From contig CP074402.1 of assembly GCA_018388625.1 (NCBI GenBank), positions 1,426,001 to 1,490,000 on the forward strand: a stretch of DNA of 64,000 nucleotides, written 5' to 3'. This document shows, in pieces, positions 5,833 to 16,121 of this stretch (within the stretch, counting starts at the first letter, position 1; each line of letters begins with the position of its first letter). The translations under genes and the position numbers were made by a program. This DNA is from Nocardiopsis eucommiae. GTDB lineage: Bacteria; Actinomycetota; Actinomycetes; Streptosporangiales; Streptosporangiaceae. The notes beneath the pieces are model-generated. The model did not search any database and had not been told where the DNA came from. It saw nothing but the letters and a program-made list of their open reading frames with translations.

Positions 5833-5890
5833 CAGTCCTGAGCTGACCTGGCCCAGTCCATGAATCGGCGCAGTGCGTGGAAGGCGTGAA

Positions 5891-6546
5891 ATGACCGAGT
5901 TCAACCCCAGTCTCATCGGCGGCGCGGCCTCGATGGCTCCCCAGAGCCGCTACGTCCTGCCGTCCTACGTGGAGCGTACGTCGTACGGCGTCAAGGAGAT
6001 GAATCCGTACAACAAGCTCTTCGAAGAGCGGATCATCTTCGTCGGCGTCCAGATCGACGACACTTCGGCCAACGATCTGATGGCCCAGCTCATCACCCTT
6101 GAGCAGCTCGACTCCGAGCGGGACATCCAGATGTACATCAACTCGCCGGGGGTTCCTTCACCTCCCTCATGGCGATCTACGACACCATGCAGTTCGTGCG
6201 CCCCGACATCCAGACGGTGTGCATCGGACAGGCCGCGTCGGCCGCCGCGATCCTGCTGGCGGGCGGCACCAAGGGCAAGCGTGGTGCCCTGCCCAACGCC
6301 CGGATGATGATCCACCAGCCCGCGACCGAGGGTATGCACGGTCAGGCCAGCGACATCGAGATCCAGGCCAACGAGATCACCCGTATCCGTACGCAGCTGG
6401 AGACCACTCTGGCCAAGCACACGGGTCGCTCCCACGAGCAGGTCTCGAAGGACATCGAGCGGGACAAGATCCTCACCGCCGAGGAGGCCGTGGAGTACGG
6501 TCTCATCGACTTCGTCCTGCCCTACCGCAAGGCCTCCCTGAAGTAA
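5891..6546 (+). CDS. clpP2: ATP-dependent Clp protease proteolytic subunit 2 (frame broken by one missing base)
   Basis: Second ClpP paralogue; in actinobacteria the active core is a mixed ClpP1/ClpP2 complex. ATG 5891 has GGAAGG before it. The frame breaks in the G run 6148-6152, inside the invariant MYINSPGGSFTS loop; adding one G gives 218 residues. Ser is in [11 protein letters not shown], His in RMMIHQPA and Asp in [10 protein letters not shown]. Since ClpP2 is normally required for growth in these bacteria, a true frameshift is very unlikely. A 292-base stretch separates it from clpX; I see no gene there. Confidence 0.95.
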
Positions 6547-6838: not shown

Positions 6839-8122
6839 GTGGCACGCATCGGCGACGGCGGGGACCTGCTGAAGTGCTCATTCTGCGGTAAGAGCCAGAA
6901 GCAGGTGAAGAAGCTCATCGCTGGCCCCGGCGTCTACATCTGCGATGAGTGCATCGATCTGTGCAACGAGATCATCGAAGAGGAACTCGCCGACGCCACC
7001 GAGCTCACGTGGGACTCCCTTCCCAAGCCCCGGGAGATCTTCGACTTCCTGGACTCGTACGTGATCGGTCAGGAGCAGGCGAAGAAGGCCCTCTCCGTGG
7101 CGGTGTACAACCACTACAAGAGAGTGCGTTCGGAGACCGACCGTCCCGGTGACGAGGACGTCGAGATCGCCAAGTCGAACATCCTCCTGCTGGGTCCCAC
7201 CGGTTCGGGCAAGACCCTGCTGGCGCAGACCCTGGCGAAGATCCTCAACGTCCCCTTCGCCATCGCGGACGCCACCGCCCTCACCGAGGCGGGCTACGTG
7301 GGCGAGGACGTCGAGAACATCCTGCTGAAGCTGATCCAGGCCGCTGACTACGACGTCAAGAAGGCCGAGACCGGCATCATCTACATCGACGAGGTCGACA
7401 AGGTCGCCCGCAAGAGCGAGAACCCGTCGATCACGCGCGACGTCTCCGGTGAGGGCGTCCAGCAGGCGCTGCTGAAGATCCTGGAGGGGACCACCGCGAG
7501 CGTGCCCCCGCAGGGCGGCCGCAAGCACCCGCACCAGGAGTTCATCCAGATCGACACCACGAACGTGCTGTTCATCTGTGGTGGCGCCTTCGCGGGGCTG
7601 GAGAAGATCATCGAGTCCCGCACGGGGCAGCAGGGCATGGGCTTCAACGCCGTGCTGCGGCCCAAGAGCGAGATGGCCGGGACCGCGCTGTTCGGCGAGG
7701 TCATGCCGGAGGACCTGCTCAAGTTCGGGATGATCCCGGAGTTCATCGGCCGTCTGCCGGTGATCACCAGCGTGCACAACCTGGACAAGGCCGCGCTGAT
7801 CCAGATCCTCACCGAGCCCCGGAACGCCCTGGTCAAGCAGTACCAGCGGCTGTTCGAGCTGGACAACGTCGAGCTGGAGTTCACCCAGGACGCCCTGGAG
7901 GCCATCGCGGAGCAGGGCATCATCCGGGGGACCGGTGCCCGTGGTCTGCGCGCCATCATCGAGGAGGTCCTGCTCTCGGTGATGTACGAGGTGCCCAGCC
8001 GGGAGGACGTCGGCCAGGTGATCATCACCCGTGAGTCGGTGGAGCAGCACGTGAACCCGACGATCGTTCCGCGCGCCCAGCTGGAGGCGGACGAGGACGG
8101 CCGCCAGGAGAAGTCGGCCTGA
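6839..8122 (+). CDS. clpX: ATP-dependent Clp protease ATP-binding subunit ClpX
   Basis: AAA+ unfoldase that recognises substrates and feeds them into ClpP. 427 residues, the usual length. The N-terminal zinc-binding domain has cysteines in KCSFCGKS and [10 protein letters not shown]. Walker A is GPTGSGKT, the pore loop GYVGEDVEN, Walker [10 protein letters not shown] and sensor 2 [13 protein letters not shown] 6839 was chosen because GAGGAG precedes it by eight bases and [16 protein letters not shown] is the usual N-terminus. The gene is followed by a strong terminator and faces a convergent lipoprotein gene. Confidence 0.97.
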
Positions 8123-8182
8123 CCGGCGGGTCCGCGCCGCCGTGAGCGGCTGGGACCGCGCGGCGCGGCCGCCGTGAGCTCA

Positions 8183-8212
8183 GGGGCGCCCTTCCCGCGG
8201 GAAGGGCGCCCC
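8183..8212. terminator. Bidirectional terminator between clpX and the DUF305 gene
   Basis: A perfect stem of GGGGCGCCCTTCCC (8183-8196) and GGGAAGGGCGCCCC (8199-8212) lies between two convergent genes. On the plus strand TTCTCGTG follows. Confidence 0.85.
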
Positions 8213-8235
8213 TTCTCGTGTCCGGCGCGGACCGG

Positions 8236-8946
8236 TCACCCTCCGCCTTCGAGGACCCCCTCCATGCGGGCGATCTCGGTGTTCTGCTCGGCGATGAGGT
8301 CGTTGGCCATCCGCAGGACCTCCTGGTCCTTGCCCTCCGCCATGGCCTCCTCGGCCATGGTGACCGCGCCCTCGTGGTGGGCGGTCATGAGCTCCACGAA
8401 GAGCTGGTCGAACGCGTCGCCGTCGGCGTCGGCCAGGCGTTCCATGTCCTCGTCGGAGACCATGCCCTCCATGTCGTCGTGGTCGACCTGGAGGTCGCAG
8501 GCGACCACGTCGTCGTCGGTGGAGTGGTGGGTGCCGTCACCCTCCAGGCCGCAGAAGTTCTGGTGGGCGGGGTTCTCCCGGGCGGGGCCGAAGACGTTCA
8601 CCTCCAGCCAGCTCTCCATGGCGGTGATCTCGGGGCCCTGCGCGGCGGCGATGCGGTCCGCGATGCGCTCGATGCCGTCGCGCTCGTAGCGGTCCGCGAC
8701 CAGGTCGGTCATCTCCAGGGCCTGCTGGTGGTGCTCGATCATCTTCACCAGATAGGTCACGTCCGCTTCGTTGTGGCCCTGCTCCTCGGCCAGTGCGGCG
8801 ATCTGGTCGGCCGTGGCGGGCGTCGAGGCCTCGCCGGGCGCGCCCGGGGCGATGACGTTGGCGGACTGCTGTCCCTCGTCACCGGAACAGGCCGAGACTC
8901 CGAGCAGCACGAGGGCGGTTCCGGCTGCGAGTGCCAGGCGGCGCAC
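8236..8946 (-). CDS. DUF305 family lipoprotein
   Basis: Exported lipoprotein of 236 residues. GTG 8946 stands behind GGAGGAG, and the signal peptide ends in the lipobox LGVSAC. Two related helical blocks follow, each with the DUF305 hallmarks: MIEHHQQALEMTDL with later MESWL, and ELMTAHHEGAVTMAEEAM. The paired His-His and Met residues are those suggested to bind metal, often copper, in this family; that is family knowledge, not shown here. The gene diverges from the four LVIVD genes, sharing about 250 bases of intergenic DNA with the first. The pairing suggests a common extracytoplasmic theme, possibly metal handling. Confidence 0.88.
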   Translation of the reverse strand: MRRLALAAGTALVLLGVSACSGDEGQQSANVIAPGAPGEASTPATADQIAALAEEQGHNEADVTYLVKMIEHHQQALEMTDLVADRYERDGIERIADRIAAAQGPEITAMESWLEVNVFGPARENPAHQNFCGLEGDGTHHSTDDDVVACDLQVDHDDMEGMVSDEDMERLADADGDAFDQLFVELMTAHHEGAVTMAEEAMAEGKDQEVLRMANDLIAEQNTEIARMEGVLEGGG

Positions 8947-9146
8947 GAGGTCTCCTCCAGGGGTGGGGGTCGGTGGAGCGGTCGCCCACCGGTGTCGGCT
9001 GACCCGACGTCCTGCGGGTTTTCTACTCACTCGAAGGGTGTTTTGTCCAGTGTCGCGGGTGTGTCGTCGGCGCCGTGTCCGTACGCCGGGTTCCCCGAGG
9101 CGTCCGTTCTCGGCGTTTCGCCTGGCTTGTGCACTCTGCGGATAGT

Positions 9147-9182
9147 ACAACCCATTGTAGTCAGATGACTTCTTTGGGTTGT
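9147..9182. promoter_or_regulatory. AT-rich inverted repeats before the first LVIVD gene
   Basis: ACAACCCA (9147-9154) is repeated inverted as TGGGTTGT (9175-9182). A smaller one, TACAA-CCCA-TTGTA, spans 9146-9159. The stretch is much richer in A and T than its surroundings and lies between the divergent DUF305 and LVIVD genes, where an operator is expected. No regulator is identified. Confidence 0.35.
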
Positions 9183-9197
9183 TTTGGGGGTGGCCGC

Positions 9198-10552
9198 ATG
9201 GCTTCGGCAACGGGACGGCGTCACGGGGCGGTCGCGCTCGCCGTGGTCGCGGCGGCCGGGCTGACGGTTCCGGGCGCCAGCGCCGACGACGGCGTGAGCA
9301 CCGGCGGGGAGTGGTGCACCTGGCCAACGTGCCCAAGCCCGAGGCGCTGGACGGGTCGCCCAACTCCGACCTGGCCTTCACCGGTGACTACCTGATCGGC
9401 GGCAACTACGACGGTTTCGTCGTCTACGACATCTCCGAACCGGCGTCGCCCACGATCGTCTCCGAGGTGGTGTGTCCGGGTGGCCAGGGCGACGTCTCCG
9501 TCAGCGGCGACCTCCTGTACTTCTCGGTGGACTACCCGCGCGCGAGCGACGAGTGCGGGGCGCCGTCCGTTCCGGCCACGGACCCAAGCGGCTTCGAGGG
9601 ACTACGGATCTTCGACATCTCGGACAAGGCGAACCCGAGGTACGTCGCGGCTGTGGCCACCGACTGCGGATCGCACACCAACACCCTGGTGCCGGGGGCG
9701 GACGGGCGCAGCGACGTGGTGTACGTGTCCTCGTACTCGCCGTCGGAGGCCTTCCCGAACTGCCAGCCGCCGCACGACAAGATCGGCGTCATCGAGGTGC
9801 CGCACGACGCCCCCGAGAAGGCCGCACTGGTCAGCGAGCCGGTGCTGTTCCCGGACGGGGGCCACACCAGCACCACGGGCTGCCACGACATCACCGCCTA
9901 CCCCGCGCGCGGCCTGGCCGCCGCGGCCTGCCTGGGCGACGGCCTGCTGCTCGACATCACGGACCCGCTCCGGCCGGAGGTGGTGGAGCGCGTCCAGGAC
10001 GAGAACTTCGCCTTCTGGCACTCCGCGACCTTCACCAACGACGCGCGGAACGTGGTCTTCACCGACGAACTCGGCTCGGGTTCCGCCGCGACCTGCAACG
10101 AGAGGATCGGTCCCGAGCGCGGGGCCAACGCCGTCCACTCGTTGGACACGTCGGGGGAGAGCCCTGAACTGGAATTTCGGAGTTACTACAAATTGCCTCG
10201 CCACCAGACCGATACCGAGAACTGTGTGGCCCACAACGGTTCGCTCATCCCGGTCCCCGGCGAGGACTATTTCGTGCAGTCCTGGTACCAGGGCGGGGTC
10301 TCGGTCATCGACCTCACCGACCCCGACGCGCCGGTCGAGGTGGGGCACTTCGACCGTGGCCCGCTCGACCCCGGGCAGCTGGTCACCGCCGGATCCTGGT
10401 CCGCGTACTACTACAACGGGCACGTCTACTCGTCCGACATGCAGCGCGGTCTGGACGTCCTCAAGCTCACCGACCCCCGGTTCGAGGGGGCGGAGTCCGC
10501 GGTGCTGGACGAGTTCAACCCGCAGTCGCAGCCGGAGCTCCCGAACGGCTGA
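9198..10552 (+). CDS. Secreted LVIVD-repeat protein, copy 1 (frame broken by one missing base)
   Basis: First of four tandem paralogues, 451 residues after adding one base in the G run 9306-9309. The signal peptide starts MASATGRRHG and ends near GASA. The mature part has beta-propeller-like LVIVD repeats (GFVVYDISEPASPTIVSEV, GLRIFDISDKANPRYVA, GVSVIDLTDPDAPVEVGHF). Conserved Cys and His occur in CGSHTNTLVPG, NCQPPHDK, GCHDITAYP, FWHSATF and NCVAHNGSLIPVPG. This is the most diverged copy, with a shorter linker after the signal peptide. There is no anchoring motif, so it is probably released. The enzymatic or binding role is unknown. Confidence 0.85.
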
Positions 10553-10560
10553 CCGGACTG

Positions 10561-10584
10561 GTGCGGCGGCGGTGGCCGCCGCAC
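10561..10584 (+). terminator. Terminator after LVIVD copy 1
   Basis: GTGCGGCGGC (10561-10570), loop GGTG, then GCCGCCGCAC (10575-10584); a perfect 10-bp stem eight bases after the stop codon. Confidence 0.7.
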
Positions 10585-10644
10585 CCGGAACCGGGCCGGT
10601 CTCGACACGGTGCGTAGGGGGATCGGGTCGGCTCGACACCCTGT

Positions 10645-10738
10645 AAACAACCATGTTTCTTTTGTTTCCCTCTATACATATTGATGTTGAACTGTGTACG
10701 TTCTTCCTGTTTCGCTCCATTAGGAATCAGGAGTACGC
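10645..10738 (+). promoter_or_regulatory. AT-rich promoter region of LVIVD copy 2
   Basis: About 90 bases of clearly lower GC than all surrounding DNA. It contains the inverted repeat AAACA-ACCA-TGTTT (10645-10658), a TATACAT at 10673-10679 that could serve as -10 element, and an AGGA ribosome-binding site just before ATG 10739. No convincing -35 is seen. The repeat resembles the one before copy 1 in layout (5-4-5) and spacer. Confidence 0.4.
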
Positions 10739-12148
10739 ATGGCGTCGTCCCCCGTCCCCTCCCGTTCAGGACGCCCGCGGTTCCGTCGGGGCTCCACGGC
10801 CCTCGCTCTCGTCGGTGCCACAGCCCTGACCCTGGGCCTCCTCGGCCCGGCCGCCGCCTCGGCGGACCAGATCCCCTTCGAGAGCGACGCCGAGACCAGC
10901 GCGAACGTCACTCACGTGACCAACGTCCCGAAGTCCGAGGCCATGGGTGACTACAACACCGACCTGGCCTTCACCGGTGACTACGCGATCGGCGGCAACT
11001 ACAACGGTTTCGTCGTCTACGACATCTCCGAGCCCGAGTCCCCGACGGTCGTCTCCGAGGTCCTGTGCCCCGGCGGCCAGGGTGACGTCTCCGTCAGCGG
11101 CGACCTCCTGTACTTCTCCGTGGACTACCCCCGCGCCAACGACGAGTGCGGCGCCCCCTCGGTCCCCACCACCGACCCGAACGGGTTCGAGGGCATCCGC
11201 GTCTTCGACATCTCGGACAAGGCCAACCCCGCCTACGTCGCGGCCGTGGCCACCGACTGCGGCTCGCACACCAACACCCTGGTGCCCGGCAAGGACGGCG
11301 AGCACGACTACGTGTACGTGTCCTCGTACTCGCCCTCGGCCAACTTCCCCAACTGCCAGCCGCCGCACGACAAGATCTCCGTGATCGAGATCCCCGTGGA
11401 CAACCCCTCCGAGGCCGCGCTGGTCAACGAACCGGTGCTGTTCCCGGACGGCGGCAACCGCAACACGACGGGCTGCCACGACATCACCGCCTACCCGGAG
11501 ATCGACCTCGCCGCCGGAGCCTGCATGGGTGACGGCATCCTGATGGACATCTCCGACCCGGCGCATCCCGAGGTCACCGACGTGGTCCGGGACGACAACT
11601 TCGCGTTCTGGCACTCCGCGACCTTCACCAACGACGCGGGCACCGTGATCTTCACCGACGAGCTCGGCGGCGGTGGCGGCGCCATCTGCACCGAGGACTA
11701 CGGCGTCGAGCGCGGCGCCAACGCCATCTACACCATCGGCGGCGAGGACGGCGCGCCCGAGCTCGACTTCGAGAGCTACTACAAGATCCCGCGCACCCAG
11801 AGCGACACCGAGAACTGCGTCGCGCACAACGGTTCGCTGATCCCGGTCCCGGGCCAGGACTTCTTCGTGCAGTCGTGGTACCAGGGCGGCGTCTCGGTGA
11901 TCGACTTCAACGACCCGACCGACCCCCGCGAGATCGGCTACTTCGACCGGGCCCCGATCGACGAGGACAACCTCGTCCTGGGCGGCTCGTGGTCGGCGTA
12001 CTACTACAACGGCTACGTCTACTCCTCCGACATCACGCGCGGCCTCGACGTGATCCGACTCGACGACCCCCGCCTGCGCTCCGCCGCTCGCGTCACCTAC
12101 GACGAGTTCAACCCGCAGTCGCAGCCGAGCTACCGACCGGGCCGCTGA
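10739..12148 (+). CDS. Secreted LVIVD-repeat protein, copy 2
   Basis: Intact paralogue of 469 residues. A long arginine-rich Sec/Tat-like signal (MASSPVPSRSGRPRFRRG) leads to LLGPAAASA, where cleavage is likely. The mature chain has the same repeats and the same conserved Cys set as its neighbours (CPGGQGDVSVSG, NDECGAPSVP, TDCGSHT, NCQPPHDK, GCHDITAY, GACMGDG, NCVAHNGS). The even number of Cys suggests disulfides outside the cell. The C-terminus FNPQSQPSYRPGR is shared by all copies with small changes. The gene has its own AT-rich upstream region and its own terminator, so it can be expressed alone. Confidence 0.9.
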   Translation: MASSPVPSRSGRPRFRRGSTALALVGATALTLGLLGPAAASADQIPFESDAETSANVTHVTNVPKSEAMGDYNTDLAFTGDYAIGGNYNGFVVYDISEPESPTVVSEVLCPGGQGDVSVSGDLLYFSVDYPRANDECGAPSVPTTDPNGFEGIRVFDISDKANPAYVAAVATDCGSHTNTLVPGKDGEHDYVYVSSYSPSANFPNCQPPHDKISVIEIPVDNPSEAALVNEPVLFPDGGNRNTTGCHDITAYPEIDLAAGACMGDGILMDISDPAHPEVTDVVRDDNFAFWHSATFTNDAGTVIFTDELGGGGGAICTEDYGVERGANAIYTIGGEDGAPELDFESYYKIPRTQSDTENCVAHNGSLIPVPGQDFFVQSWYQGGVSVIDFNDPTDPREIGYFDRAPIDEDNLVLGGSWSAYYYNGYVYSSDITRGLDVIRLDDPRLRSAARVTYDEFNPQSQPSYRPGR

Positions 12149-12208
12149 CGCGGGCCACGACCTCTCCCGGTGGCTCCTCCTGGGGAGTCAGGGCAAACGG
12201 GAGAGAAC

Positions 12209-12236
12209 GGGGCCGTGGCTCGACGGCCACGGCCCC
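12209..12236 (+). terminator. Terminator after LVIVD copy 2
   Basis: GGGGCCGTGGC (12209-12219) pairs with GCCACGGCCCC (12226-12236) around a TCGACG loop. Confidence 0.75.
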
Positions 12237-12287
12237 GCCGCGTCCCGCCCCCTCCACTCCCCGTCCCCCAACCGATCTGGAGAAACC

Positions 12288-13705
12288 ATGCCCGCAGCTC
12301 CCCCGTCACGGGCCGGTCGCGTCCCGCGCGGTGCGACGGCCGTCGCGCTGACCGCGGCGGCGACCCTGTTCGCCGGGCTCCTCGGCCCGGCGGCAGCGTA
12401 CGCCGACACCCCGCCCTCCGACAGCGTCACCAGCGACAACGTCGAGCACCTGGCCAACGTCCCCAAGCCGGCGGCGGTCAGCAACACCAACTCGGACCTG
12501 GCCTTCACCGGTGACTACGTCATCGGCGGCAACTACGACGGCTTCGTGATCTACGACGTCGCGGACCCCGCGGACCCGACGATCGTCACCGAGGTGGTGT
12601 GCCCCGGCGGCCAGGGCGACGTCTCCGTCAGCGGCGACCTCCTGTACTTCGCGGTGGACTCCCCCGCGCGAACGACGAGTGCGGCGCCCCCGCGGTGCCC
12701 GTCACCGACCCGAACGGGTTCGAGGGCGTCCGGATCTTCGACATCTCGGACAAGGCCAATCCCCAGTACGTCGCGGCCGTGCGCACCGACTGCGGCTCGC
12801 ACACCCTGACCCTCGTGCCCGGCGCGGACCCCTCGACCGAGCTGGTCTACGTCTCGTCCTACGCGCCCTCGGCCGCGTTCCCGAACTGCCAGCCGCCGCA
12901 CGACAAGATCGCCATCATCGAGGTCCCGCTGGACGACCCGGGGTCGGCCGCGATCGTCAACGAGCCGGTGCTGTTCCCGGACGGCGGCAACCACGACCAG
13001 CCCGGTCTGCTCCGTCCCACCGAGGGCTGCCACGACATCACGGTCTACCCGTCCAAGGACCTCGCCGCCGGGGCCTGCATGGGTGACGGCATCATCATGG
13101 ACATCTCCGACCCGATCGAGCCGGTGGTCACCGAGGTGGTCCAGGACGAGAACTTCGCGTTCTGGCACTCCGCGACCTTCACCAACGACGCCGAGGCCGT
13201 CCTGTTCACCGACGAGCTCGGCGGCGGTGGCGCGGCCACCTGCACCGAGGAGATCGGTCCCGAGCGCGGCGCCAACGCGATCTACGCCCTGGACGAGACC
13301 GCCGACGGCGGGCACAGCCTCGAGTTCGCGAGCTACTTCAAGATCGACCGTCACCAGGGCGACCAGCAGACCTGCGTCGCGCACAACGGGTCGCTCATCC
13401 CCGTTCCGGGGAAGAACTACTTCGTGCAGTCCTGGTACCAGGGCGGCGTCTCGATCATCGACTTCAACGACCTCAGCAACCCCCGCGAGATCGGCTACTT
13501 CGACCCCGACGACCGGATCGACCCGGACATCGACAACGGCAGCACCTGGTCCGCGTACTACTACAACGGCCACGTCTACTCCTCGGACATGCGTCGCGGC
13601 CTGGACGTCCTCAAGCTCACCGACCCGCGCCTGCGCGCGGCGGAACGGGTGACCTACGAGGAGTTCAACCCGCAGACCCAGCCGGCCTACCGTCCCGGGC
13701 GGTAA
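12288..13705 (+). CDS. Secreted LVIVD-repeat protein, copy 3 (frame broken by one missing base)
   Basis: Paralogue of 472 residues once one base is restored near 12660-12665. The other three copies read VDYPRA there, so the lost base is probably the A of the Tyr codon. The signal peptide ends FAGLLGPAAAYA and the mature protein starts DTPPSDSV, nearly the same as copy 4. Compared with copy 4 it has a longer loop at NHDQPGLLRPTEGCHD and in the propeller region (DETADGGHSLEFASYF). All conserved Cys and His are present. Its role is unknown; it is very probably a recent duplicate of copy 4. Confidence 0.87.
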
Positions 13706-13721
13706 CCGGCCACGACGCACC

Positions 13722-13752
13722 GGGGTGCCGCGCGGGCCACGCGCGGCACCCC
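13722..13752 (+). terminator. Terminator after LVIVD copy 3
   Basis: GGGGTGCCGCGCG (13722-13734) pairs perfectly with CGCGCGGCACCCC (13740-13752) around GGCCA. Confidence 0.8.
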
Positions 13753-13798
13753 GCGTGCTGTCACCCATCCCCGAACCCCCACCAGGAAAGGCCGACCC

Positions 13799-15163
13799 AT
13801 GCGCTCCTCCTCGCGCCGTGTCGCCGCACTCGCGACCGCCGCGGCCGCGACGCTGTTCGCCGGGCTCCTCGGCCCGGCGGCCGCGTACGCGGACACCCCG
13901 CCCTCGGACCAGATCTCCAGCGACAACGTCGAGCACGTCGCGAACGTCCCCAAGCCCGACGCGATCAGCAACACCAACTCGGACCTGGCCTTCACCGGCG
14001 ACTACGCCATCGGCGGCAACTACGACGGCTTCGTGATCTACGACATCTCCGAGCCCGAGTCCCCGACGATCGTCTCGGAGGTCCTGTGCCCCGGTGGCCA
14101 GGGCGACGTGGCGGTCAGCGGTGACCTCCTGTACTTCGCTGTGGACTACCCCCGCGCGAACGACGAGTGCGGCGCCCCCTCCGTCCCGGTCACCGACCCG
14201 AACGGGTTCGAGGGCGTCCGGATCTTCGACATCTCGGACAAGGCCAACCCGCAGTACGTCTCGGCCGTGCGCACCGACTGCGGCTCGCACACCCTGACCC
14301 TCGTGCCGGGTGACGCGGAGCGCGAGTACGTGTACGTGTCCTCGTACTCGCCCTCGGCCAGCTTCCCCAACTGCCAGCCGCCGCACGACAAGATCGGGAT
14401 CATCGAGGTGCCGCTGGACGCTCCTTCGGAGGCGTCCCTGGTCAACGAGCCGGTGCTGTTCCCGGACGGTGGCCACCGCACGACCACCGGCTGCCACGAC
14501 ATCACGGTCTTCCCGTCCAAGGACATCGCCGCGGGCGCCTGCATGGGTGACGGCATCATCATGGACATCTCGGACCCGGTCGACCCGGTGGTCACCGAGG
14601 TGGTCCAGGACGAGAACTTCGCGTTCTGGCACTCCGCGACCTTCACCAACGACGCCCGGACGGTGCTGTTCACCGACGAGCTCGGCGGTGGCGGAGCGCC
14701 CACCTGCACCGAGGAGATCGGTCCCGAGCGCGGCGCCAACGCGATCTACGCCCTCGACGGTGAGGGCGCCGACACGACGCTGGAGTTCGCGAGCTACTTC
14801 AAGATCGACCGCCACCAGGGCGACCAGGTGTGCGTGGCGCACAACGGCTCGCTGATCCCGGTCCCGGGCCAGGACTTCTTCGTGCAGTCGTGGTACCAGG
14901 GCGGCGTCTCGGTGATCGACTTCAACGACCCGACCAACCCCCGGGAGATCGGCTACTTCGACGCCGACGACCGGATCGACCCGGACGTCCAGAACAACGA
15001 CACGTGGTCGACGTACTACTACAACGGCTACGTGTACTCGTCCGACATCGACCGGGGTCTGGACGTCCTCAAGCTGACCGACCCGCGCCTGCGCGCGGCG
15101 GAGCGCGTCACCTACGAGGAGTTCAACCCGCAGACCCAGCCGGTCTACCGCCCCGGCCGGTAG
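13799..15163 (+). CDS. Secreted LVIVD-repeat protein, copy 4
   Basis: Intact paralogue of 454 residues. The signal peptide starts MRSSSRRVAALATAA and ends GLLGPAAAYA; AGGAAAGG lies before the ATG. The repeats GFVIYDISEPESPTIVSEV, GVRIFDISDKANPQYVS, GIIMDISDPVDPVVTEV and GVSVIDFNDPTNPREIGYF show the LVIVD-type strand pattern four times or more. The His-containing motifs CGSHTLTLVPG, FWHSATF and CVAHNGSLIPVPG are invariant over all copies and probably line one face of the propeller. A substrate or ligand cannot be named. Confidence 0.9.
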   Translation: MRSSSRRVAALATAAAATLFAGLLGPAAAYADTPPSDQISSDNVEHVANVPKPDAISNTNSDLAFTGDYAIGGNYDGFVIYDISEPESPTIVSEVLCPGGQGDVAVSGDLLYFAVDYPRANDECGAPSVPVTDPNGFEGVRIFDISDKANPQYVSAVRTDCGSHTLTLVPGDAEREYVYVSSYSPSASFPNCQPPHDKIGIIEVPLDAPSEASLVNEPVLFPDGGHRTTTGCHDITVFPSKDIAAGACMGDGIIMDISDPVDPVVTEVVQDENFAFWHSATFTNDARTVLFTDELGGGGAPTCTEEIGPERGANAIYALDGEGADTTLEFASYFKIDRHQGDQVCVAHNGSLIPVPGQDFFVQSWYQGGVSVIDFNDPTNPREIGYFDADDRIDPDVQNNDTWSTYYYNGYVYSSDIDRGLDVLKLTDPRLRAAERVTYEEFNPQTQPVYRPGR

Positions 15164-15180
15164 CCGGGCGGTGACGTGGA

Positions 15181-15212
15181 GAGGGGCCGGGGAACATGTT
15201 CCCCGGCCCCTC
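15181..15212. terminator. Bidirectional terminator between LVIVD copy 4 and the Rpn-like gene
   Basis: A 32-base perfect palindrome: GAGGGGCCGGGGAA, a CATG centre, then TTCCCCGGCCCCTC. It lies between convergent genes. Confidence 0.85.
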
Positions 15213-15224
15213 AGCGTTGTCGCC

Positions 15225-16121
15225 TCAGTCGAGGAGGTCCTCCGGTCGGTCCACGGTGACCGCGGCGGGGACCCACTTCTCCAGGGTCGCCAGGTCGGCG
15301 CAGCCCTCCACGCGTCGCCGGACCTCGTCCGAGATGGTGAACCCCCGTGCCTCCAGCACGGAGAGGACGCTGCGCGCCGCCTCAGCCGCGCGGCCCTCCT
15401 CCCGGCCCTCTTCGCGGCCTTCTTCCCGGCCTTCCTCGCGGCCGATGCCGACGTACTTGCGGGCGAAGTCGCTCTGCCACTCGTAGGTCTCCACAGCCAT
15501 CAAGCCCTCCAACTCCTCCCGAGCGGCCTCGTTGAGGCCGGACAGCACATAGTCATAGTAGAACGCCCGATTTCGCTCGGGCGTGGAATCCAGGGCCTCG
15601 ACCACGGCACGCAGGGTGCGCGGATCCGAGTTCCCGTGCGCGTGGGCGGACAGGACGGCCAGCTCCGGAAGCTCACGAGCCTGTTCGTCACGCGCGATCA
15701 CCGGCATCCTGCTCGGACCGATGGTCAGCGGGGCGAGGTCGAATCCGGGGTGCCCGGTGCGGATCGGGGCGGCGCACCAGCTCGCCAGGGAGTCCGTGGG
15801 ACAGAGCACCACCAGCAGCGTCGGGCACTCCAGTCGCGTGTGGAGGTTGACCAGGTAGGCGGGCCAGGTCAGGCGCTTCTCCTTGTCACGGCCGTTCTGG
15901 CGCTCGACCACCACCGCCATGACGTTCCGGGGCCCGTCACGCAGGAGGACCGCGCCGTCGGCGTTGAGCTCCCTGGGGTCGCAGTTGGTCAGGGCCGTGT
16001 TGGTATTGACCACCTCGGTGTGGCGGGGGATCTCGAAACCCAGGGCCCGCACCAGTACGGGCGCCAGCGCGGGTTGGTTCTGCACGAGCCGCAGGGGGAT
16101 CTCGTGCTCTCGTGTGGGCAT
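15225..16121 (-). CDS. Rpn/YhgA-like PD-(D/E)XK nuclease family protein
   Basis: 298 residues. The N-terminus (MPTREHEIPLRLVQNQPALA) and the core, with DGAVLLRDG followed by AVVVERQNG, match the nuclease-like family that is abundant in actinomycetes and related to recombination-promoting Rpn proteins. The Asp and the E-x-Q would be the metal ligands of the fold. Near the C-terminus lies a perfect four-residue repeat REEGREEGREEGREEGR, then a helical end. A cellular role is not established for this family. The gene stands alone between the LVIVD array and the FolC-like gene. Confidence 0.72.
   Translation of the reverse strand: MPTREHEIPLRLVQNQPALAPVLVRALGFEIPRHTEVVNTNTALTNCDPRELNADGAVLLRDGPRNVMAVVVERQNGRDKEKRLTWPAYLVNLHTRLECPTLLVVLCPTDSLASWCAAPIRTGHPGFDLAPLTIGPSRMPVIARDEQARELPELAVLSAHAHGNSDPRTLRAVVEALDSTPERNRAFYYDYVLSGLNEAAREELEGLMAVETYEWQSDFARKYVGIGREEGREEGREEGREEGRAAEAARSVLSVLEARGFTISDEVRRRVEGCADLATLEKWVPAAVTVDRPEDLLD

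What the first reader, a model, noticed from the sequence alone, without database searches (positions are those of the whole stretch)
8236..15163. Four tandem secreted LVIVD-repeat proteins divergent from a DUF305 lipoprotein
The four copies are clearly homologous over their full length, each with its own signal peptide, and each is followed by its own hairpin. Copies 3 and 4 are nearly the same even in the signal peptide, so duplication continued recently. Four expressed copies of a large extracellular protein beside a putative metal-binding lipoprotein suggest dosage or binding diversity, and no function is known to me.
Basis: partly seen in the sequence, partly recalled or inferred. Interest (0 to 1): 0.7.

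Follow-up and report, generated by a model that had tools for sequence, protein, structure and literature searches.

The report
Paired propeller and metal-binding secreted proteins
Four tandem genes for exported propeller-shaped proteins sit beside a gene for a probable metal-binding lipoprotein, and the same two kinds of protein are found side by side or joined into one chain in distant bacteria, which suggests they work together, probably around a metal held in the propeller.

Summary
The array is real: a DUF305 lipoprotein gene divergent from four homologous exported propeller genes in a Nocardiopsis genome. In this assembly copies 1 and 3 lose their reading frame; N. prasina has all four intact. 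Copies 1, 2 and 3/4 are genus-wide paralogues, so the duplication is mostly old. In an even sample of Actinomycetota, all 9 other genomes with a close propeller relative have the pair, but only 1 of 8 with distant ones. Linked DUF305s often carry a PGxPG segment (66 of 74; 7 of 12 in the even sample); 64 unlinked ones do not. The model is a seven-bladed propeller whose inner strands begin with invariant D, D, H, H, H, H, S; Foldseek's best solved match is the Sphingobium phosphotriesterase. Best reading: an exported metalloprotein, perhaps an enzyme, with a CopM-like metal-loading or tethering partner. Metal, substrate and activity are untested. The papers searched hold one incidental mention of a DUF305/propeller gene pair.

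The parts
8236..8946 (-). DUF305 lipoprotein (CopM-like, two HH motifs), GTG start at 8946; PGAPG segment between lipobox and domain
   Evidence: Pfam PF03713 140 bits vs 27; NCBIfam CopM 85.5 bits vs cut-off 90; PDB relatives 2qf9, CopM 5fej; start, lipobox and PGAPG read
9198..10552 (+). Propeller copy 1; reading frame lost near 9310 between signal peptide and mature part in this assembly
   Evidence: intact orthologue in N. prasina L032
10739..12148 (+). Propeller copy 2, intact, 469 aa; modelled as a seven-bladed beta-propeller
   Evidence: D75 D116 H177 H247 H292 H363 S419 (full-length numbering) at or next to the seven inner-strand starts
12288..13705 (+). Propeller copy 3; reading frame lost near 12660 in this assembly
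   Evidence: intact orthologue in N. prasina
13799..15163 (+). Propeller copy 4, intact, 454 aa
10560..10585 (+). Hairpin after copy 1 (11-bp perfect arms)
12208..12237 (+). Hairpin after copy 2 (12-bp perfect arms)
13721..13753 (+). Hairpin after copy 3 (14-bp perfect arms)
15181..15212 (.). Inverted repeat after copy 4 (16-bp perfect arms, no bases between them), between convergent genes
8947..9197 (.). Divergent control region with blocks conserved in the genus (one at 9011-9050), including an imperfect palindrome at 9147-9182 just upstream of copy 1
   Evidence: palindrome pattern found once in the genome

Best explanation
The DUF305 lipoprotein and the LVIVD propellers are two halves of one exported module. 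The propeller is a seven-bladed beta-propeller that most likely binds one or two metal ions at the mouth of its central channel through four invariant histidines and two invariant aspartates, with nearby acidic residues helping, and uses them either for catalysis (hydrolysis or oxidation of a small molecule) or for metal capture. The DUF305 protein, a membrane-anchored relative of the copper-binding protein CopM, is its partner: it delivers or exchanges the metal and/or tethers the secreted propeller at the cell surface, perhaps through its N-terminal PGxPG segment. In Nocardiopsis the propeller half was duplicated early in the genus (1-4 copies beside one DUF305). Shown: the pairing, the fusions, the family assignments and the conserved residues. 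Predicted: the fold and the position of the residues on the inner strands. Inferred: metal binding by the propeller, metal hand-over, tethering, catalysis.
For: Pairing: 61 adjacent and 12 fused of 79 relatives, in divergent, co-directional (either gene first) and convergent layouts, with 1.3 kb or less between the matched domains; fusions in both orders, propeller-DUF305 in 4 Serinicoccus records and DUF305-propeller in 8 gammaproteobacterial and acidobacterial ones, with DUF305 confirmed by Pfam in the three fused proteins scanned. No other neighbour cluster recurs in more than 9 of 62 loci. Even sample of 149 Actinomycetota genomes, own included: 9 of 9 other genomes with a close relative (E <= 1e-170) have an adjacent DUF305, while 38 of 148 others have any DUF305. 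18 non-actinomycete genomes chosen for holding a propeller: 32 of 36 DUF305 matches lie next to a propeller gene. PGxPG in 66 of 74 linked DUF305s and, in the even sample, 7 of 12 linked against 0 of 64 unlinked (Fisher p 3.6e-7). Distances of the two proteins correlate, Mantel r 0.86 over 57 loci, highest of 2000 permutations 0.24. Metal site: the model (pLDDT 89.9, pTM 0.91) has 28 strands = 7 x 4 plus a short last one, and D, D, H, H, H, H, S at or next to the start of the seven inner strands are invariant in 55 aligned sequences; D, D, H, H, H, H are each kept in 27 or 28 of 28 proteins of the even sample, 11 of them distant. Foldseek's best match is 5hrm, the Sphingobium TCM1 phosphotriesterase (E 2.3e-14; next entry 2.3e-9), also the best PDB match by sequence, weakly; the title of its structure paper, seen in a reference list, speaks of a binuclear metal centre in a seven-bladed propeller. 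CopM binds copper (passages of PMC4335983).
Against: No metal, substrate or phenotype is known. Some propeller copies have no DUF305 nearby: 5 of 62 non-Nocardiopsis loci; 8 of 40 in the 18 genomes, 3 of these within 250 bases of a contig start; 3 of 6 and 5 of 7 copies in G090 and G114; and 7 of 8 genomes with only distant relatives. The second aligner, VIA-align, lists WD40-type and other propellers and does not show 5hrm in its 50 rows, so kinship to that enzyme is not secure. I had no coordinates and did not measure whether the six side chains converge. PGxPG is missing from 5 of 12 linked DUF305s in the even sample (one has a near variant) and from several paired with divergent propellers. 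The Mantel correlation partly reflects species descent. The copper or iron link of DUF305 comes from relatives, not from this protein.
Confidence: 0.5

Rival explanations
1. The DUF305 protein is mainly a surface tether or co-receptor and the propeller a binding protein (adhesion, matrix or metal sequestration) with no catalysis.
For: A lipobox-like site lies upstream of the domain in 37 of 62 unfused linked DUF305s while the propellers start with plain signal-like sequences by eye; PGxPG sits between anchor and domain and is confidently modelled in the fusion (blocks of pLDDT 86-90); fusions would replace docking.
Against: Six potential metal ligands are invariant where a mere binding surface would be expected to vary; the Pseudohongiella fusion shows no lipobox by eye yet keeps PGxPG.
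Confidence: 0.25
2. The propeller is a phosphotriesterase-like or other phosphoester hydrolase related to the Sphingobium TCM1 enzyme, used for phosphorus scavenging.
For: Best solved-structure match by Foldseek and by sequence.
Against: Only 14% identity over the fold; sequence E-values 0.003-0.009 over about 30 residues; not singled out by VIA-align; metal ligands of 5hrm were not compared; no third gene recurs beside the pair; DUF305 relatives point to copper or iron.
Confidence: 0.12
3. The Nocardiopsis linkage is only inherited gene order next to clpX, without functional meaning.
For: Within the genus the block clpP-clpX-DUF305-propellers-folC is conserved where the contigs allow a view.
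Against: Outside the genus the pair persists in other layouts and phyla and as fusions, while no other neighbour cluster recurs widely.
Confidence: 0.02

Closest known systems
Choice-of-anchor B family (NCBIfam TIGR04312) / LVIVD repeat (Pfam PF08309)
   Same: Repeat type recognised; TIGR04312 aligns over most of copy 2 (74-440, 61.6 bits)
   Different: Below the TIGR04312 cut-off of 100 bits; the one search for that family name found 0 papers; a DUF305 partner is not part of either model
Haloalkylphosphorus hydrolase / phosphotriesterase of Sphingobium sp. TCM1 (PDB 5hrm, 5ioj)
   Same: Seven-bladed propeller (title seen); best Foldseek and PDB sequence match
   Different: 14% identity; ligand residues not compared; activity untested; not among the 50 VIA-align rows
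CopM copper-binding protein (NCBIfam NF049983; PDB 5fej)
   Same: DUF305 domain, two HH motifs, export signal
   Different: Scores 85.5 against the cut-off of 90; PGxPG segment and propeller partner; CopM of Synechocystis belongs to a copper-resistance operon (abstract start, passages)
Snov_0990 (DUF305) / Snov_0991 (YVTN propeller) of Starkeya novella
   Same: A DUF305 gene 12 bp from a propeller gene, likely under one promoter activated by RpoE1 (passages of PMC6527743)
   Different: Annotated as YVTN rather than LVIVD; its sequence was not compared; mentioned as a promoter target in a study of sulfite oxidation

Membership tests
LVIVD repeat, Pfam PF08309 | score above the curated cut-off 20.2 | tested here: met
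   36.4, 35 and 33.5 bits for copies 1, 2, 4; the two pieces of copy 3 score 18.2 and 18.5, below it
Choice-of-anchor B, TIGR04312 | score above the curated cut-off 100 | tested here: not met
   55.3, 61.6 and 56.4 bits for copies 1, 2, 4; 43.7 for the longer piece of copy 3, none for the shorter
DUF305, Pfam PF03713 | score above the curated cut-off 27 | tested here: met
   140 bits
CopM metallochaperone, NF049983 | score above the curated cut-off 90 | tested here: not met
   85.5 bits; six linked or fused relatives 63.6-80.8
CopM metallochaperone, NF049983 | copper binding | not testable with these tools
   needs purified protein
Sphingobium-type beta-propeller phosphotriesterase | seven-bladed propeller fold | tested here: met
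   28 strands in seven sets of four in the model; Foldseek E 2.3e-14, TM 0.67 (query-normalised) to 5hrm_A; a fold shared with many unrelated propellers
Sphingobium-type beta-propeller phosphotriesterase | same metal ligands in the channel | not tested
   the full 5hrm sequence and coordinates were not at hand
Sphingobium-type beta-propeller phosphotriesterase | phosphotriesterase activity | not testable with these tools
   needs assay
Methanethiol oxidase MtoX, NF052453 | score above the curated cut-off 650 | tested here: not met
   no match of the window proteins listed at E <= 1; one distant relative (L211) 15.1 bits

The most novel reading that the evidence does not exclude
A widespread, undescribed class of exported metalloenzyme: a seven-bladed propeller with a four-histidine, two-aspartate channel site that travels with, and has at least twice fused to, its own dedicated CopM-like metallochaperone, docked through a PGxPG segment.
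Probability: 0.3. Interest if true: 0.8.

Novelty: new variant of a known kind. Interest (0 to 1): 0.6.

Why it matters
DUF305 and LVIVD/choice-of-anchor B proteins are common and functionally almost blank. Showing that a subset of each forms a pair in several phyla, with fusions in both orders and an invariant candidate metal site, turns two unknown families into one testable system: one gene pair, four named histidines, one linear motif. If the metal site is real it would add a metal-using class of exported propeller and give DUF305 proteins a client.

Tried and rejected
Gene-order hitch-hiking beside clpX: rejected, because the pair persists outside the genus in other layouts and no other neighbour cluster recurs widely. 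A third component: clustering 623 predicted neighbour ORFs (within 7 kb, 62 loci, my own GC3-based gene choice) gave at most 9 loci for one cluster (ABC-transporter ATPase-like by eye) and 5 for the next (an earlier run timed out); neighbours of nine propeller loci without DUF305 showed no common gene by eye, and I did not search them against family libraries. RNA elements: no Rfam match in 8000-15300. Sigma-70-type promoters: none found; by my own knowledge such a scan covers actinomycete promoters poorly. The palindrome before copy 1 as a regulon operator: my pattern of it occurs once in the genome at up to 3 mismatches. VIA-align second look: 966 chains aligned, 50 shown, 5hrm not among them; it neither supports nor excludes the phosphotriesterase kinship. 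Fusion model: 81.6 mean pLDDT; no coordinates were given, so the DUF305-propeller interface could not be read. Literature: 'LVIVD' 19 papers (several on a heart measurement with the same letters), 'choice-of-anchor B' 0, 'DUF305' 27 (inflated, since the term also matches DUF3050-3059), 'DUF305' with 'propeller' 2, of which PMC6527743 is relevant and PMC4520260 matched DUF3050 in the passages seen; no paper id is in both the LVIVD and the DUF305 list. A phosphotriesterase search and one on the TCM1 propeller gave listings only. Passages seen: PMC13001254 (matched DUF3052; irrelevant), PMC7966952, PMC13284251, PMC4335983, PMC6527743, PMC11656708 (reference list), PMC4520260, PMC2447325 (abstract and references). 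Only papers under CC0, CC BY or CC BY-SA were searchable.
Full report
What is in the window. The window is part of a 6.1-Mb, two-contig genome whose nearest named relative in the scan is Nocardiopsis prasina DSM 43845 (95% for copy 2; records very near the window's own may be left out there). Downstream of clpP1, clpP2 and clpX (names by my reading of the ORFs) lies a DUF305 gene on the minus strand (8236-8946), divergent from four homologous plus-strand genes ending at 15163. Each of the four starts with a signal-like N-terminus by eye and is followed by a perfect GC-rich inverted repeat.

What is not as described. Copy 1 changes frame near 9310, between signal peptide and mature part, and copy 3 near 12660. 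N. prasina has four uninterrupted copies in the same order. clpP2 in this window is broken too (near 6150), and the assembly is rated 84.39% complete, while 37 of the 39 relatives are at 98-100% (the other two 85 and 91%), so indel errors are the likelier cause; but partial or split copies also occur in other genomes of the genus (loci L042, L052, L053, L054, L056, L057, L060), so real decay is not excluded. Expression of all four is therefore an assumption.

History of the copies. 38 of 40 genus genomes searched (own included) have the family. From 36 of the 37 others I took one locus each; 32 of the 36 show DUF305 directly beside the array; in three of the other four the match lies within 460 bases of a contig end (L064, L066, L067), and L056 holds only fragments. 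Arrays hold one to four copies. On the tree (quick maximum-likelihood search without mixture model, rooted by me; support values not quoted) copy 1, copy 2 and copies 3/4 fall into genus-wide groups, except the three copies of N. endophytica (L083), which group with each other. Within the window, c3-c4 are 84.7% identical and the other pairs 69.5-76.4%; each copy is 89.5-96.0% identical to its N. prasina counterpart. So the array is old; the c3/c4 duplication is younger but precedes these species.

The pairing outside the genus. Using an HMM grown from the window's DUF305, DUF305 is adjacent in 61 and fused in 12 of the 79; six have none, one of them close to a contig start (L072). Leaving out the 17 Nocardiopsis loci, 57 of 62 have it. 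The record titles name Actinomycetota genera, Gemmatimonadota, Rhodothermaceae/Longimonas, Acidobacteria/Vicinamibacterales and Gammaproteobacteria, which I count as five phyla. Layouts: 37 divergent, 12 co-directional with DUF305 first, 10 convergent, 2 co-directional with the propeller first. Fusions come in both orders: propeller-DUF305 in four Serinicoccus records, DUF305-propeller in Pseudohongiella, other Gammaproteobacteria, Acidobacteria and Vicinamibacterales. Pfam confirms DUF305 in all three fused proteins that I scanned (of 12); the LVIVD model hits only the Serinicoccus one above its cut-off, the other two being recognised below cut-off by choice-of-anchor B and by my own HMM. In the same 62 loci no other neighbour cluster reaches more than 9.

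Less biased samples. In 149 Actinomycetota genomes drawn evenly (own included), the propeller profile at E <= 1e-20 hits 18 and DUF305 at E <= 1e-8 hits 39. Of the 17 other genomes with a propeller, 10 have DUF305 within 1 kb: all 9 with a close relative (E <= 1e-170) and 1 of 8 with only distant ones (coordinates compared by me from the two tables). In two of them, G090 and G114, 3 of 6 and 5 of 7 propeller copies lack a DUF305 nearby. In 20 genomes behind chosen loci (picked because they hold a propeller, five of them because no DUF305 was seen nearby), the 18 non-actinomycete ones have 32 of 36 DUF305 matches beside a propeller gene and 32 of 40 propeller genes beside a DUF305; the two actinomycete ones have 2 of 6 and 2 of 2. 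So DUF305 has many other lives in Actinomycetota, but the close propeller family rarely lives without it.

A signature of the linked DUF305. Between export signal and domain many linked proteins carry (V/I)xPGxPG. Exact PGxPG: 66 of 74 in the 79-locus set, mostly 34-35 residues before the first HH motif; seven of the other eight have a near variant by eye. In the even sample: 7 of 12 linked against 0 of 64 unlinked (44, 20; Fisher p 3.6e-7). The 64 are all but three of the unlinked genes in the table by my count (two further rows overlap genes already read); two are from the window's own genome (L168, L181), three are identical to each other in the stretch read (L258-L260), and in four no HH anchor was found and the first 90 residues were read. 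Several DUF305s paired with divergent, split-matching propellers lack the segment. It is kept whether DUF305 is free, N-terminal or C-terminal in a fusion (as PAAPG in two Serinicoccus records), so it is not simply a linker. Its role is unknown; docking is my inference.

The propeller and its likely metal site. The model of mature copy 2 (pLDDT 89.9, pTM 0.91) has 28 strands, which I read as seven blades of four with N-terminal closure, plus a short final strand. At or next to the start of the seven inner strands stand D31, D72, H133, H203, H248, H319 and S375 (add 44 for full-length numbering). All seven, with D204, D263, E264, N320, Q334, W336, E354 and W374, are invariant in 55 sequences. 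In 28 near-full-length proteins from the even sample (overlap with the 55 not checked; three partial ones left out), D31, D72, H133, H203, H248, E264 and H319 are kept in 27, 28, 28, 27, 28, 28 and 28, while N320, Q334 and W336 drift in the distant ones. Inner-strand starts of a propeller line the mouth of the central channel (general knowledge of the fold), so these residues should face each other; I could not measure it. Foldseek ranks the Sphingobium TCM1 phosphotriesterase first, phmmer and the profile do so too, weakly, and a reference-list entry gives the title of its structure paper, which names a binuclear metal centre in a seven-bladed propeller. VIA-align does not single it out.

The DUF305 side. 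All 74 linked domains keep two HHxx[AG] motifs. CopM, a studied relative, binds copper and is partly extracellular (passages of PMC4335983); ISIP3 of diatoms, another DUF305 protein, is iron-starvation induced and placed in the ferritin superfamily (passage of PMC7966952). The window protein falls just below the CopM cut-off. An incidental DUF305/YVTN-propeller gene pair in Starkeya novella, likely under one promoter activated by RpoE1, is in print (passages of PMC6527743); I did not compare its sequences.

Mechanism. Most likely the propeller holds metal at the channel mouth and the DUF305 partner loads it, shares it or holds the propeller at the surface. Fusion in two orders argues for a direct relation; a single DUF305 beside up to four Nocardiopsis propellers suggests one partner can serve several. 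Which metal, whether there is catalysis, and why Nocardiopsis keeps several copies remain open.

On re-reading the calls I corrected the position of the conserved block (9011-9050), the wording on copies without DUF305 at contig ends, the completeness count and the count of unlinked DUF305s (64); none of this changes the odds.

Noticed in passing
window 5873-6546: clpP2 is frame-broken near 6150 relative to N. prasina, a sign of indel errors in this assembly.
   Followed up: partly
window 9147-9182: Imperfect palindrome just upstream of copy 1, recognisable in many genus members with paired changes by eye; my pattern of it is unique in the genome at up to 3 mismatches. Could be an operator or a leader hairpin.
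   Followed up: partly
window 9011-9050: Block CCTGCGGGTTTTCTACTCACTC....GGGTGTTTTGTCCAG upstream of DUF305, strongly conserved across 33 aligned genus loci; read on the minus strand it resembles a promoter by eye.
   Followed up: no
window 10640-10738: An AT-richer leader precedes copy 2 and recurs in relatives by eye, whereas copies 3 and 4 have only short, hairpin-filled spacers, so they may depend on read-through.
   Followed up: no
window 8182-8213: A perfect 16-bp inverted repeat between the convergent ends of clpX and DUF305.
   Followed up: no
window 15225-16121: Minus-strand gene with EEGR repeats in its last third, resembling Rpn nuclease/transposase-like proteins only far below threshold (12.6 bits); a relative lies beside the array in some genus loci and was not found in others.
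   Followed up: no
L199, L200, L201, L202: Propeller copies without a nearby DUF305 in two actinomycete genomes with 6-7 copies (G090, G114).
   Followed up: partly
L218, L219, L220, L221: DUF305 genes paired with a more divergent propeller type that matches the profile in two pieces; these DUF305s lack PGxPG.
   Followed up: partly
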